From a virus, in IMG/VR virus record IMGVR_UViG_3300045999_003547, positions 1 to 21,539 of that record: a stretch of DNA of 21,539 nucleotides; one strand, given 5' to 3'. Numbering within the stretch: position 1 is the stretch's first letter; the number at the start of each line of letters is the position of its first letter. Both the position numbers and the translations under genes were made by a program. This document shows, in pieces, positions 580 to 3,973 of the stretch. The notes under the pieces are model-generated. The model saw only the letters and a list, made by a program, of their open reading frames with translations, made no database searches and was not told where the DNA came from.

Positions 580-608
580 TTGACAGGAAGACAATTTCCT
601 GTTACACT
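580..608 (+). promoter_or_regulatory. sigma70-like promoter of the ncRNA/TROVE operon
   Basis: TTGACA at 580-585, a 17-nt spacer and TACACT at 603-608 make a near-consensus promoter. Transcription should begin near 615. The sequence just after the -10, ATAGTCTGTTGATTGA, is shared with the cassette promoters at 6201, 6961, 8387, 12336 and 15580, so this unit belongs to the same regulatory class. The first start codon with a ribosome-binding site is at 1005, leaving an unusually long untranslated transcript. Confidence 0.8.
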
Positions 609-614
609 ATAGTC

Positions 615-963
615 TGTTGATTGAAAACTTAGGGTGATTACAGCAAACAAATTCTAACGCTAAGGAGAGTCTTTAATCGGAGGACCCGCGTAAGCGGTTA
701 CAAAGTAGACTAGGATGCACAATTGCCGAATCTTGTGCTAGTGCCTACGACATAGGATGACGCAGATAATTCTGATAGTTTGGGTGGGGAGAAGCACCTT
801 AGTTAGAACAACTGATCAAACACGAACCGAACACCCTGCTATATTTACGAGAATAGGTTCAGCAAATCAAATGACTTAGCGTGTAACGCGCTTCCGGTAT
901 GTTGGGGAGAACCCCGGCAAGGTGAGTTTCGAGTTCTCTCCTTCGGTTCAATTCCGAAAGACT
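615..963 (+). ncRNA. Candidate structured RNA with tRNA T-arm mimic (possible Y-like RNA)
   Basis: The 426 nt between the nuclease and TROVE genes have a strong promoter but no credible reading frame. A perfect T-arm mimic lies at 942-958: 5-bp stem TTCGG/CCGAA with loop TTCAATT, matching the tRNA T-loop consensus. Directly 3', AGACT (959-963) can pair with AGTCT (668-672), the position an acceptor-type stem would take. Other hairpins are 901-918 (7 bp, loop AGAA), 717-738 (GCACAA/TTGTGC), 744-756 (CCTA/TAGG) and 801-813 (AGTT/AACT). Long-range alternatives exist (657-664 with 875-882; 662-669 with 936-943), so the fold is not unique. Bacterial Y RNAs mimic tRNAs and lie beside Ro genes, hence the proposal. 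I cannot place a Ro-binding stem with confidence. A long structured leader or another phage RNA class are alternatives. Confidence 0.5.
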
Positions 964-1004
964 AAAAAGAAGAAAACTATTCTGTTGCATTGAAAGGAAA
1001 TATC

Positions 1005-2432
1005 ATGAACACTTTTGTTGACGCTGTTATGAATCAAGAAGCCCGCACTGAGAATGGAATGAAGGCGCGTAAGTCTACTTCCAATGCATGTGTGGATCTG
1101 TTTTTCAAGATCGGCGCATCTCGCGGCAAGAACATCCTGAAGGAGTTCATTGCTGCATACGTTGAGAACAAGGACCTTGCACTGCGCATTGCACAGTGGG
1201 CGCGTGATGCGCGTGGTGGTTCTGGTGAGCGCCAGGTGTTTCGCGACATCTTGGCATATCTGGAAAAGAATGATCCAGAATCCGCAAAGGCTCTTTTGCC
1301 TAAGGTGCCTACTCTTGGGCGTTGGGATGACATCTTTGTCTTCCAAACTTCCGAGTTGAAGTCTGCTGCATACAGTATGCTTGGTGATGCACTGCGCGAG
1401 AAGAATGGTTTGGCTGCTAAGTGGACTCCTCGCCAAGGTCCAATCGCAGTTGAGATCCGCAAGTTCTTCGGCATGTCTCCGAAGTTCTATCGGAAGTCTC
1501 TTGTTGAGATGACTAAGGTCGTTGAGCAACAAATGTGTGCTAAGGAATGGGATGAGATCAACTTCTCTCATGTTCCTTCTGTTGCACATGCGCGATACAA
1601 GAAGGCTTTTGGGCGTAACACTCCTAAGTACGCTGAGTACGTGACTTCCCTTGTTAAGGGTGACAACCCCGAAGTCAAGGTGAATGCAGGTGCAGTGTAT
1701 CCTTACGATGTGTTGAAGGGTGCGATCTCTCCTTACAATAGAGTTCAGTTTGACAAGACTGGGCTTGATCTGATGACTAAGCAGTGGGAAGCACTGGAGA
1801 ACTTCATCGGTGATGCAAGCGTGTTGCCTCTGGTTGACGTTAGCGGATCTATGACTATCCCTGTGGGTGGTCATGGTTCTAAGACTCAGTTGAATTGTCT
1901 GGAAGTTGCAGTCTCTTTGGGATTGTACTGTGCAGACAAGAACAAGGGTAAGTTCAAGGACACGTTCTTGACTTTCTCTGGTAAGCCAGAACTGTTGCAT
2001 CTTAAGGGTAACATCGTTCAGAAGATTGAGCAGATGACTTCCTCAGATTGGGGAATGAATACTGATCTGGTTTCAGCAATGAACCTGATCCTGATGACTG
2101 CTGTGAAGGGCAATGTTCCTCAAGAGGAAATGCCTGGAATGCTTCTGATCATGTCCGATATGCAGTTTGATCGATGCGCAAGTTTTGATGACTCCGCTAT
2201 GGAGACAATCAAGCGCAAGTTCACTCAGAACGGATATGAAGTGCCTGCGATTGTGTTCTGGAATATCAACTCAAAGGACAATGTTCCTGCGAAGTCTAAT
2301 CAGAGCAAGGTTGCGATGGTATCTGGTTTCAGCCCAGCTATCATGAAGTCTGTTCTGAGTGCTGACACTGAAAAGTTCACACCAGAAGGCATCATGTTGA
2401 ACACTGTGATGGTACCAAGGTACGATCTGTAA
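1005..2432 (+). CDS. TROVE/Ro60-like (DUF2828-type) protein with vWA domain
   Basis: This 475-residue protein has the two-part architecture of Ro60/Rsr relatives. The N-terminal helical-repeat part carries the family block ARDARGGSGERQVFRD (residues 66-81). A C-terminal vWA domain has a complete metal-ion-dependent adhesion site: DVSGS (278-282), the threonine of NTDL (T353) and the aspartate of MSDMQ (D385). Ro proteins bind misfolded RNAs in the ring cavity and Y RNAs on its outer surface, and the bacterial homologue tethers to exonucleases. The ATG at 1005 is preceded by AAAGGAAA; an in-frame TTG at 990 has no better site. The stop overlaps the next start (TAATG). DUF2828 and TROVE are related, and I cannot decide between them by eye. 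Confidence 0.85.
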   Translation: MNTFVDAVMNQEARTENGMKARKSTSNACVDLFFKIGASRGKNILKEFIAAYVENKDLALRIAQWARDARGGSGERQVFRDILAYLEKNDPESAKALLPKVPTLGRWDDIFVFQTSELKSAAYSMLGDALREKNGLAAKWTPRQGPIAVEIRKFFGMSPKFYRKSLVEMTKVVEQQMCAKEWDEINFSHVPSVAHARYKKAFGRNTPKYAEYVTSLVKGDNPEVKVNAGAVYPYDVLKGAISPYNRVQFDKTGLDLMTKQWEALENFIGDASVLPLVDVSGSMTIPVGGHGSKTQLNCLEVAVSLGLYCADKNKGKFKDTFLTFSGKPELLHLKGNIVQKIEQMTSSDWGMNTDLVSAMNLILMTAVKGNVPQEEMPGMLLIMSDMQFDRCASFDDSAMETIKRKFTQNGYEVPAIVFWNINSKDNVPAKSNQSKVAMVSGFSPAIMKSVLSADTEKFTPEGIMLNTVMVPRYDL

Positions 2433-3064: not shown

Positions 3065-3138
3065 GCGGGATTAGTTTATTGGTAAAACGAAACCTTGCCA
3101 AGGTTTAGTGACCAGTTCGATTCTGGTATTCCGCTCCA
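3065..3138 (+). tRNA. tRNA-Gly(GCC)
   Basis: Acceptor GCGGGAT pairs with ATTCCGC, discriminator T, CCA encoded at 3136-3138. The anticodon arm is AAACC, loop TTGCCAA, GGTTT, giving anticodon GCC. The T loop is canonical. It starts directly after the stop codon of the ATP-grasp-like gene, so it is probably cut from the same transcript. Confidence 0.93.
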
Positions 3139-3146
3139 GTAACAAT

Positions 3147-3221
3147 GGTGGCTATGGTGTAATGGAAGCACTCGACTCTGTGAAAGTCGTAGCCTGAGGT
3201 CGGTACTCAGTAGTCACCCCA
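3147..3221 (+). tRNA. tRNA-His(GUG) with encoded G-1
   Basis: Acceptor GTGGCTA (3148-3154) pairs with TAGTCAC, the extra G-1 at 3147 faces C73, and CCA is encoded. The anticodon arm CGACT/AGTCG has loop CTGTGAA, giving GTG. The G-1:C73 pair is the histidine identity element. The T arm (CTGAG/CTCAG) is paired but its loop is GTCGGTA instead of TTCRANY, losing T54 and A58. Confidence 0.88.
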
Positions 3222-3228
3222 ATTTAAT

Positions 3229-3304
3229 GCTGCTTTAGCTGATGTGGTCATAGCGGAGGCCTGAAGAGCCTTGGAACGTGGTTCGATCCCACGAGGCAGC
3301 ACCA
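3229..3304 (+). tRNA. tRNA-Phe(GAA)
   Basis: Acceptor GCTGCTT pairs with AGGCAGC (one G-T), discriminator A, CCA encoded. Anticodon arm GAGGC, loop CTGAAGA, GCCTT gives GAA. The T arm is CGTGG/CCACG with loop TTCGATC. Confidence 0.93.
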
Positions 3305-3312
3305 GAACAAAC

Positions 3313-3388
3313 ACGCCCTTGGTGAAACTGGAGATCACATAAGTCTACGAAATTTAAGTTGGGGATTCGAATTCCTCAGGGCGTACCA
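3313..3388 (+). tRNA. tRNA-Arg(ACG)
   Basis: Acceptor ACGCCCT pairs perfectly with AGGGCGT, discriminator A, CCA encoded. The D arm is GTGA/TCAC. The anticodon arm TAAGT/ATTTA (one G-T) holds loop CTACGAA, giving ACG, normally read as inosine at position 34 after host TadA modification. T arm GGGGA/TCCTC has loop TTCGAAT. Confidence 0.85.
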
Positions 3389-3393
3389 TTATT

Positions 3394-3485
3394 GGCGCTG
3401 TGGCAGAGTCCGGTTTATTGCAGCAGTCTTGAAAACTGCCGATCCCGAAAGGGGTCCGTGAGTTCGAATCTCACCGGCGCCGCCA
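3394..3485 (+). tRNA. tRNA-Ser(UGA)
   Basis: Class II tRNA: acceptor GGCGCTG with CGGCGCC, discriminator G and encoded CCA. Anticodon arm GCAGT/ACTGC has loop CTTGAAA, giving TGA. The long variable arm (GATCCC GAAA GGGGTC) and G73 are serine identity features. Confidence 0.93.
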
Positions 3486-3493
3486 GTAAGTAT

Positions 3494-3582
3494 AGTGAGT
3501 TGGATGAGTGGCTTAAATCGGCACCCTGCTAAGGTGTTGTTCGTAGAAATACGGACCGTGGGTTCGAATCCCACACTCACTG
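3494..3582 (+). tRNA. tRNA-Ser(GCU), CCA not encoded
   Basis: Class II tRNA: acceptor AGTGAGT pairs with ACTCACT, discriminator G3582. Anticodon arm GCACC/GGTGT (one G-T at its outer end) has loop CTGCTAA, giving GCT. A long variable arm is present. The three bases after the discriminator are CCG, so the tail must be repaired by a nucleotidyltransferase. It is the only complete tRNA here without an encoded CCA. Confidence 0.9.
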
Positions 3583-3588
3583 CCGTCA

Positions 3589-3617
3589 TTGACAAAGAAA
3601 TGATCTTCTGATAAAAT
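3589..3617 (+). promoter_or_regulatory. Promoter inside the tRNA array
   Basis: TTGACA at 3589-3594, a 17-nt spacer and TAAAAT at 3612-3617 form a near-consensus promoter between tRNA-Ser(GCU) and tRNA-Leu. The predicted start near 3624 is only about 3 nt before mature tRNA-Leu, so this promoter gives the last four tRNAs, and possibly the following hydrolase gene, a second transcript. Confidence 0.8.
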
Positions 3618-3626
3618 GTTTATGTT

Positions 3627-3703
3627 GCCCCGGTGATGGAACCGGTATACGTGTCGGATTCAAAATCCGAATTTTGAGGGTTCGAATCCCTCCTGGGGCA
3701 CCA
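3627..3703 (+). tRNA. tRNA-Leu(CAA) with short variable loop
   Basis: Acceptor GCCCCGG pairs with CTGGGGC, discriminator A, CCA encoded. Anticodon arm TCGGA/TCCGA has loop TTCAAAA, giving CAA (UUG codon). Only 5 nt (3671-3675) separate the anticodon and T stems, so this is a class I shape, whereas bacterial tRNA-Leu normally has a long variable arm. The D stem is short (ATG/CGT). Confidence 0.8.
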
Positions 3704-3714
3704 GAAGAAATAAT

Positions 3715-3789
3715 GCGCCTCTAGCTCAATGGGAGAGCAGAGCCCTCATAAGACTTTGGTACTTGGATCGAAACCAAGGGGGCGCACCA
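3715..3789 (+). tRNA. tRNA-Met(CAU) or tRNA-Ile2
   Basis: Acceptor GCGCCTC pairs with GGGGCGC, discriminator A, CCA encoded. The anticodon loop CTCATAA gives CAT; its stem GAGCC/GACTT contains a C-A mismatch. The T loop is ATCGAAA (A54 instead of T54). CAT can mean elongator Met, or Ile2 if lysidine-modified, and I cannot tell which. It lacks the three G-C pairs of an initiator anticodon stem. Confidence 0.78.
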
Positions 3790-3796
3790 AGAATTT

Positions 3797-3893
3797 ACCT
3801 CTATAGTTTAATGGCAGAACACCCGGCTTATAATCGGTTAAATGGCTCCGCGACGGGGGCGTAGTGTAGGTTCGAATCCTACTAGAGGTACCA
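3797..3893 (+). tRNA. tRNA-Ile(UAU) with a 27-nt variable region
   Basis: Acceptor ACCTCTA pairs perfectly with TAGAGGT, discriminator A, CCA encoded. D stem GTTT/GAAC. The anticodon loop CTTATAA gives TAT (AUA codon). The T arm GTAGG/CCTAC with TTCGAAT is canonical. The variable region 3839-3865 is 27 nt and can form a hairpin (GCTCC with GGGGC), which is unexpected for Ile. Either a class II-like isoleucine tRNA or a small insertion. Confidence 0.75.
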
Positions 3894-3895
3894 AT

Positions 3896-3973
3896 GCACC
3901 GGTGGCAGAGTGGTCAAATGCAACGGATTGCAAATCCGTAAAGTCGTCAGTTCAAATCTGACCCGGTGCTCCA
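3896..3973 (+). tRNA. tRNA-Cys(GCA)
   Basis: Acceptor GCACCGG pairs with CCGGTGC, discriminator T, CCA encoded. The anticodon arm ACGGA/TCCGT with loop TTGCAAA gives GCA. T arm GTCAG/CTGAC, loop TTCAAAT. U73 is a cysteine identity base. It is the last tRNA before the hydrolase gene. Confidence 0.92.

What the first reader, a model, noticed from the sequence alone, without database searches (positions are those of the whole stretch)
580..2432. Phage Ro60-like protein with a structured RNA directly upstream on one transcript
Seen: one strong promoter, about 390 nt of non-coding, hairpin-rich sequence, then a 475-residue protein with the TROVE/DUF2828 block and a full vWA MIDAS. Known: in several bacteria and some phages Ro/Rsr genes lie next to Y RNAs that gate Ro. 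Inference: this phage encodes a complete Ro/Y-like RNP, possibly for RNA quality control or protection of its own tRNAs.
Basis: partly seen in the sequence, partly recalled or inferred. Interest (0 to 1): 0.88.

Follow-up and report, generated by a model that had tools for sequence, protein, structure and literature searches.

The report
Phage Ro protein with Y-RNA-like array
This phage carries a ring-shaped Ro60-type RNA-binding protein gene behind two structured RNAs that share a docking motif; relatives show this is one case of a widespread, previously undescribed set of interchangeable Y-RNA-like units, many of which imitate whole tRNAs or only their anticodon arm.

Summary
The 475-aa protein (1005-2432) is DUF2828+DUF7788, has all MIDAS residues and a predicted Ro60 fold; the TROVE HMM itself does not match. 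The ~400-nt leader is not one RNA but two tandem units (631-837, 850-983). Each is closed by its own 5'/3' stem and carries a conserved box, stem-NNN-CAGCAA. Single-sequence folding is unremarkable (z -0.53), but comparative evidence is strong. Leaders of 71 related loci hold many units with orthogonal covarying stems. Contigs found by the unit alone carry the Ro gene in 36/50 cases, against 1/35 controls. The same box lies beside very distant DUF2828 genes in phages and in bacterial genomes (58 units against 1 on the control strand). Effector parts are swapped: circularly permuted tRNA mimics with capped acceptors (YrlA architecture), anticodon-arm mimics (U33 in 34/36), and large modules such as the window's two. 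TROVE-linked YrlA RNAs in Mycobacteriales share the tRNA-mimic plan but carry a GGUUA box. Best reading: a Ro/Y-like RNP with a DUF2828-specific box. Y RNAs in mycobacteriophages were known; the box, arrays and anticodon-arm class were not found described in the papers held. Ro binding, expression and function are inferred. New variant of a known kind.

The parts
580..608 (+). sigma-70-like promoter TTGACA-17-TACACT
   Evidence: 10/12 matches, extended TG; in relatives 25/178 units have such a promoter within 75 nt upstream against 1.5% of random positions
631..837 (+). RNA unit 1 ('type B', ~207 nt): closing stem AGGGTG (631-636) / CACCCT (832-837), box CAGCAA at 641-646, several internal hairpins
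   Evidence: alignment A3 of 11 relatives: 91.7% of cells paired, 13 pairs with changes on both sides, 0/500 shuffles as good
850..983 (+). RNA unit 2 ('type A', ~134 nt): closing stem AGAATAG (850-856) / CTATTCT (977-983), box CAGCAA at 860-865
   Evidence: alignment A4 of 23 relatives: 98.8% of cells paired, covariation 0/500 shuffles as good; found by the strict scan
921..941 (+). conserved type-A hairpin with T-loop-like UUUCGAGUU
   Evidence: invariant GTTTCGA in 23 relatives, stem covaries
942..958 (+). tRNA T-arm-like hairpin TTCGG-TTCAATT-CCGAA
   Evidence: sequence shows directly; comparable second hairpin in L002, L018
1005..2432 (+). Ro60-like protein, DUF2828 + DUF7788 (vWA), 475 aa
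84..578 (+). PF04308 RNase H-like (YkuK-type) protein, frequent neighbour
   Evidence: 2.4e-16; homologue in 21 of 71 related loci; adjacent to the Ro gene in KVP40 and 1.081.O
3065..3973 (+). ten-tRNA array downstream; relatives also carry the Ro gene inside tRNA clusters

Best explanation
A phage Ro ribonucleoprotein with a small array of Y-RNA-like RNAs. The DUF2828 protein is a Ro60-fold ring with a vWA domain. It most likely docks on a box made of a short closing stem plus the single-stranded CAGCAA that follows its 5' strand. Each RNA of the array carries this box at its ends, with its own stem sequence so that it folds on itself, and presents an exchangeable effector part: the large structured type B and type A parts in this window; in relatives also circularly permuted tRNA mimics with capped acceptor stems, mimics of a lone anticodon arm, and box hairpins grafted into the anticodon stem of tRNAs. 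Most likely the array supplies tRNA-like adaptors or decoys on a Ro scaffold during infection, and a unit just upstream of the Ro start codon lets Ro regulate its own mRNA. Shown: the units, their folding, the tRNA and anticodon-arm mimicry, the Ro fold, the genetic association. Inferred: binding, processing into discrete RNAs, decoy/adaptor role, autoregulation.
For: Unit folding tested without choosing by pairing: 94/122 unique 5' sites pair 4/4 with the first downstream 3' site (mean 3.54; shuffled mean 2.30, maximum 2.59), 17 stem variants; pairing with the preceding unit's 3' site is full in only 4/54 against 43/54 with their own. Covariation of the window's two unit types. 219 units in the Ro loci, 4 on the reverse strand. 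Unit-only pattern scans: 36/50 contigs of 40 kb or more carry the Ro gene; 1/35 chance-pattern controls (after removing 3 contigs with real units). In Cronobacter phage S13 and Synechococcus phage BUCT-ZZ01 the units lie on the Ro strand within the tRNA/Ro cluster, with one spurious hit. Same box by DUF2828 genes of Listeria P100, Enterococcus EFDG1, Campylobacter CP30A, Bacillus FADO, Fusobacterium Fnu1, Aeromonas APT65 and LAh_9 and in bacteria (58 against 1). Permuted tRNAs: 16/85 medium units give a tRNA in doubled sequence, 0/85 in reversed controls; one of the 16 (L077 13-112) is a linear tRNA and some anticodon calls are unstable. Capped acceptors. Anticodon-arm mimics: 7-nt loops in 31/71 short units against 4.7 expected; U33 34/36, A37 34/36, 15 anticodons. 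Ro fold: the ten best structural matches are all Ro60/TROVE, Z 15.4-10.5, next 9.6 covering the vWA only; Foldseek 9l5y 1.7e-6, 2nvo 1.2e-5. A unit ends within 60 nt of the Ro start in 66/71 loci. TROVE loci in Mycobacteriales have tRNA-mimic RNAs of the same plan.
Against: No RNA-seq or binding data. The protein does not match the TROVE HMM and the model is moderate (pLDDT 73.5). Several phage Ro genes have no unit in their immediate flank: Ahp1, BF, OC, Milchi, EniLVp02, XbC2, phiWae14, Felix O1-type, and KVP40 shows only half a motif. 14/50 unit-bearing contigs show no Ro gene, though they may be fragments. In Listeria phage cka15 the one highly transcribed non-coding region with published coordinates contains no unit. 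The window's own units are not full tRNA mimics.
Confidence: 0.72

Rival explanations
1. Leader-only: the units are cis-acting elements of the Ro mRNA (an autoregulatory operator or processing/stability elements) and do not act as free RNAs.
For: A unit ends 13-56 nt before the Ro start in 66/71 loci, most often 17 nt; in DLP_6 and L081 the 3' strand of the stem runs straight into the Shine-Dalgarno sequence; no terminator between the RNAs and the ORF in the window.
Against: Units also lie far from Ro, between tRNA genes (L003, L029, L032, L041, S13, BUCT-ZZ01) and downstream of Ro in Krypton555; many have their own promoter; their tRNA and anticodon mimicry has no obvious leader role.
Confidence: 0.15
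2. Mini-intron reading: the box is a ~40-nt intron. Where it sits in tRNA anticodon stems it is spliced out; where its halves flank a unit (permuted order) the unit is circularised.
For: tRNAs in S13, BUCT-ZZ01 and L032 carry the box hairpin in the anticodon stem and give a perfect 5-bp stem and 7-nt loop if it is removed; Rfam's tRNA model aligns across the insert.
Against: 3' and 5' halves of neighbouring units do not pair (4/54); no RtcB in 20 records, Rnl1 in none and Rnl2 in 4 of 14 IMG/VR relatives, many of them fragments; acceptor stems of permuted units are often capped without CCA; insert tRNAs often duplicate a normal isoacceptor and one has a flawed T stem; TROVE-linked YrlA RNAs have the same topology with a different box.
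Confidence: 0.08
3. The two RNAs belong to an unrelated large phage non-coding RNA class (ROOL/GOLLD type) that happens to neighbour Ro.
For: Type B is large, structured, and lies in a tRNA cluster as such RNAs do (established knowledge).
Against: No Rfam match at E<=5 nor in 20 related loci beyond tRNA/tmRNA; same box and closing stem as the small units; association with Ro.
Confidence: 0.05

Closest known systems
YrlA Y RNAs with Rsr (Salmonella, mycobacteria, mycobacteriophages)
   Same: RNA gene beside a Ro gene, 5'/3' closing stem, in many relatives a tRNA mimic with D arm, T arm and capped acceptor; TROVE-linked examples recovered here in Mycobacteriales
   Different: TROVE-linked RNAs carry GGUUA (10/15), the DUF2828-linked ones CAGCAA; arrays of several units; lone anticodon-arm units; the window's type A/B parts are not tRNA mimics
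Ro60/Rsr (1YVP, 2NVO, human 9NEN, Thermus phage phiLo 9L5Y)
   Same: predicted overall fold, vWA with MIDAS
   Different: no PF05731 match; DUF2828/DUF7788 sequence families; 11-16% identity over the aligned structure
Putative Y RNAs of Listeria phage CKA15 (PMC12282133)
   Same: phage Ro homologue, and highly transcribed non-coding RNAs within 2 kb upstream that the authors suggest may be Y RNAs; that Ro protein was found in purified particles
   Different: the region with given coordinates (26,236-26,727) lacks the box; three box units lie at 25,291-25,551
rsr-yrlBA-rtcBA RNA-repair operon (PMC7790460)
   Same: Ro, tRNA-like RNA and tRNA damage are linked; its authors propose YrlA as a competitive inhibitor of an anticodon nuclease
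   Different: no RtcB in the phage records searched; host operon, not an array

Membership tests
Ro60/TROVE superfamily (protein) | HEAT-like ring plus vWA fold | tested here: met
   AlphaFold model pLDDT 73.5; ten best structural matches all Ro60/TROVE, Z 10.5-15.4 over 323-383 residues
Ro60/TROVE superfamily (protein) | complete MIDAS DxSxS...T...D | tested here: met
   D278, S280, S282, T353, D385 invariant in 22 homologues
Ro60/TROVE superfamily (protein) | match to TROVE HMM PF05731 | tested here: not met
   not listed in Pfam scan; no match at E<=1
DUF2828 (PF11443) | Pfam match over gathering score | tested here: met
   86.2 bits against 29, E 2.8e-24
Y RNA (generic plan) | 5' and 3' ends paired in a stem, gene next to ro | tested here: met
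   units at 631-837 and 850-983 directly upstream of the gene
Y RNA (generic plan) | binds the Ro protein | not testable with these tools
   only genetic association: 36/50 against 1/35
YrlA | tRNA-like domain with D arm, T arm and acceptor | tested here: not met
   window units show only T-arm-like hairpins (921-941, 942-958); full mimics occur in relatives
YrlA | same Ro-binding box as TROVE-linked YrlA | tested here: not met
   GGUUA in 10/15 TROVE-linked units against CAGCA in DUF2828-linked ones
split/permuted tRNA intron | halves of adjacent units pair to form a linear intron | tested here: not met
   4/54 full pairing upstream against 43/54 with own partner
split/permuted tRNA intron | excision and ligation of the RNA | not testable with these tools
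   needs RNA

The most novel reading that the evidence does not exclude
A modular phage decoy system: Ro proteins of the DUF2828 type display, through a common CAGCAA docking box, an interchangeable set of tRNA mimics (whole permuted tRNAs with sealed acceptors, bare anticodon arms of many specificities, tRNAs with a grafted box) that absorb host anticodon nucleases or other tRNA-targeting defences while the phage's real tRNAs stay intact.
Probability: 0.28. Interest if true: 0.88.

Novelty: new variant of a known kind. Interest (0 to 1): 0.72.

Why it matters
It gives a sequence handle, the CAGCAA box plus closing stem, that predicts the RNA partners of a Ro-like family found in 681 phage records and in bacterial genomes, and shows that Y-type RNAs come in arrays with swappable effector parts. 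The anticodon-arm units, whose loops obey tRNA rules, make a long-standing question testable: what Ro/Y particles do with tRNAs, and whether phages use them against tRNA-cleaving defences.

Tried and rejected
Minimum-free-energy stability of the leader as evidence: not significant. Rfam: no family for the units. A loose DNA pattern (GTAGAAAAC...TTCAGCAA) mostly returned chance hits and was used only as a control set. The mini-intron/circular-RNA idea, first favoured after finding box hairpins inside tRNAs, was demoted by the pairing test, the capped acceptors, redundant isoacceptors, patchy ligases and the YrlA parallel. Expectation that the published highly transcribed cka15 region would contain the units: not met. 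TROVE search in 395 Enterobacterales genomes to recover Salmonella-type YrlA: none; Mycobacteriales used instead. The Chen 2014, Wang 2018 and Sim reviews on YrlA are not held, so the published YrlA consensus could not be compared directly. PADLOC and NCBIfam: no match.

Full report
Observation. The window is a 21.5-kb IMG/VR virus record. A single sigma-70-like promoter (580-608) precedes a non-coding stretch and a 475-codon ORF at 1005-2432. Pfam gives DUF2828 and DUF7788; the TROVE HMM does not match. The MIDAS residues are invariant in 22 homologues down to about 33% identity. An AlphaFold model built on 25 relatives finds Ro60 first: the Thermus phage phiLo Ro60, D. radiodurans Rsr and human Ro60 by Foldseek, and ten Ro60/TROVE entries ahead of any single-domain match in the second aligner. 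So it is a Ro60-fold protein outside the reach of the TROVE HMM.

The leader is two RNA units. Folding the leader alone is uninformative (z -0.53). The loci of 80 relatives at 61-74% identity show why it is interesting: their leaders consist of units with the consensus 5' UUUAGG-AUNN-NNN-CAGCAA ... NNAU-CCUGUU 3'. The window has two, 631-837 and 850-983. A strict scan finds 219 units on the Ro strand of these loci and 4 on the other strand. That scan demands pairing, so pairing was tested separately: taking 5' and 3' sites by their fixed letters only and joining each 5' site to the first 3' site downstream, 94 of 122 pair at all four variable positions, mean 3.54 against 2.30 (maximum 2.59) for shuffled partners; the second base pair is G-C in 71 and A-U in 23 with no mixed case. 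The preceding unit's 3' site pairs fully in 4 of 54 cases. Units are therefore self-closing and mutually orthogonal. Alignments of the window's two types show covariation that no shuffle reaches.

What the units present. Insert lengths fall into classes. (a) Short units of about 50-65 nt: the best hairpin has a 7-nt loop in 31 of 71 against 4.7 expected, and among 36 such loops position 33 is U in 34, position 37 A in 34, position 38 A in 33, with 15 different anticodons: mimics of an anticodon arm. (b) Medium units: 16 of 85 become a tRNA only when the insert is read circularly (one of them, L077 13-112, is a tRNA lying linearly inside its unit), none in reversed controls. They fold as closing stem, anticodon arm, T arm, acceptor capped by 3-5 nt, D arm, closing stem; a few keep an ACCA end with a linker (L073, Cronobacter S13). 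(c) Type A (window unit 2), with an invariant T-loop-like hairpin, and (d) type B (window unit 1), 170-290 nt, no known family. (e) In S13, BUCT-ZZ01 and L032 the same box appears as a hairpin inserted in the anticodon stem of otherwise complete tRNAs with CCA ends; in the two complete genomes three of four such tRNAs duplicate a normal isoacceptor (anticodons read by eye).

Association with Ro. Two scans of IMG/VR with a unit pattern alone returned 138 stretches; of the 50 contigs searched, all of 40 kb or more, 36 carry the DUF2828 gene. Of 38 contigs taken from chance hits of a loose pattern, four carry it, and three of those have real units. In named phages far from the window the box lies beside the Ro gene in Listeria, Enterococcus, Campylobacter, Bacillus, Fusobacterium, Aeromonas and, by eye and downstream of Ro, mycobacterial phages; it is missing from the immediate flank in about eight others. 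Bacterial DUF2828 loci, mostly Clostridia but also Mycolicibacterium, Breznakiella and a Methanobrevibacter bin, give 58 units on the Ro strand and 1 on the other.

Link to Y RNAs. TROVE loci were fetched from Mycobacteriales. Upstream of them lie RNAs with the same permuted-tRNA plan and capped acceptors, as expected for YrlA, which is described as a closing stem plus a domain like the D, T and acceptor arms of tRNA (PMC8394870). Their 5' flank carries GGUUA in 10 of 15, not CAGCA. Two Ro subfamilies thus appear to use one RNA architecture with different boxes, which makes protein docking the simplest role for the box. This comparison also decided against an intron: the topology is that of a known Ro RNA. 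Y RNAs in mycobacteriophages were reported by Chen et al. 2014 (cited in PMC12282133; the paper itself was not readable here), so Ro/Y pairs in phages are not new. PMC7790460 raises the idea that YrlA may competitively inhibit an anticodon nuclease.

Function. Steps shown: two structured RNAs, a Ro60-fold protein, a common box, tRNA and anticodon-arm mimicry in relatives, strong association. Steps inferred: the box binds Ro; the units are released or act as discrete RNAs (25 of 178 have a promoter within 75 nt against 1.5% of random positions); the mimics serve as adaptors or decoys for tRNA-acting enzymes; the last unit, ending within 60 nt of the Ro start in 66 of 71 loci, gives autoregulation. 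The window's own effector parts, types A and B, are not tRNA mimics and their partners are unknown.

Limits. The record is a fragment. No transcript or binding data exist for this phage. In the Listeria phage cka15 the one highly transcribed non-coding region with given coordinates does not overlap the box units. Scans were regular-expression based and will miss diverged units; counts are lower bounds.

Noticed in passing
L078:4148-4534: A permuted tmRNA directly after the Ro gene, matching Rfam tmRNA_permuted and beta_tmRNA: a phage-borne tmRNA hinting at betaproteobacterial hosts.
   Followed up: partly
window:84-578: PF04308 RNase H-like (YkuK-type) gene just upstream; homologue in 21/71 related loci and adjacent to Ro in KVP40-like phages. 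A functional partner is possible.
   Followed up: partly
L235:3237-3728 (cka15 26,236-26,727): Published as one of the most transcribed non-coding regions of Listeria phage cka15; contains no CAGCAA unit and remains an unidentified RNA.
   Followed up: partly
L076:447-557 and L077:124-235: Permuted tRNA mimics with a UCA anticodon, which would read UGA.
   Followed up: no
L008:1296-1476: Permuted tRNA mimic whose acceptor stem is extended into a long additional structured arm.
   Followed up: no
L234:966-1079 and L234:3715-3827: Two tRNAs of 113-114 nt in Aeromonas phage APT65, probably carrying inserted box hairpins.
   Followed up: no
L224:3118-3280: Felixounavirus record annotates tRNA-Pro and tRNA-Glu inside the Ro ORF; Rfam finds none there, so probably an annotation error.
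   Followed up: partly
window:1-58: A tRNA cut off by the 5' end of the record; the tRNA cluster continues upstream.
   Followed up: no
window:10399-11037: Weak nucleotidyltransferase / poly(A) polymerase-like protein, perhaps an RNA-end repair enzyme.
   Followed up: no
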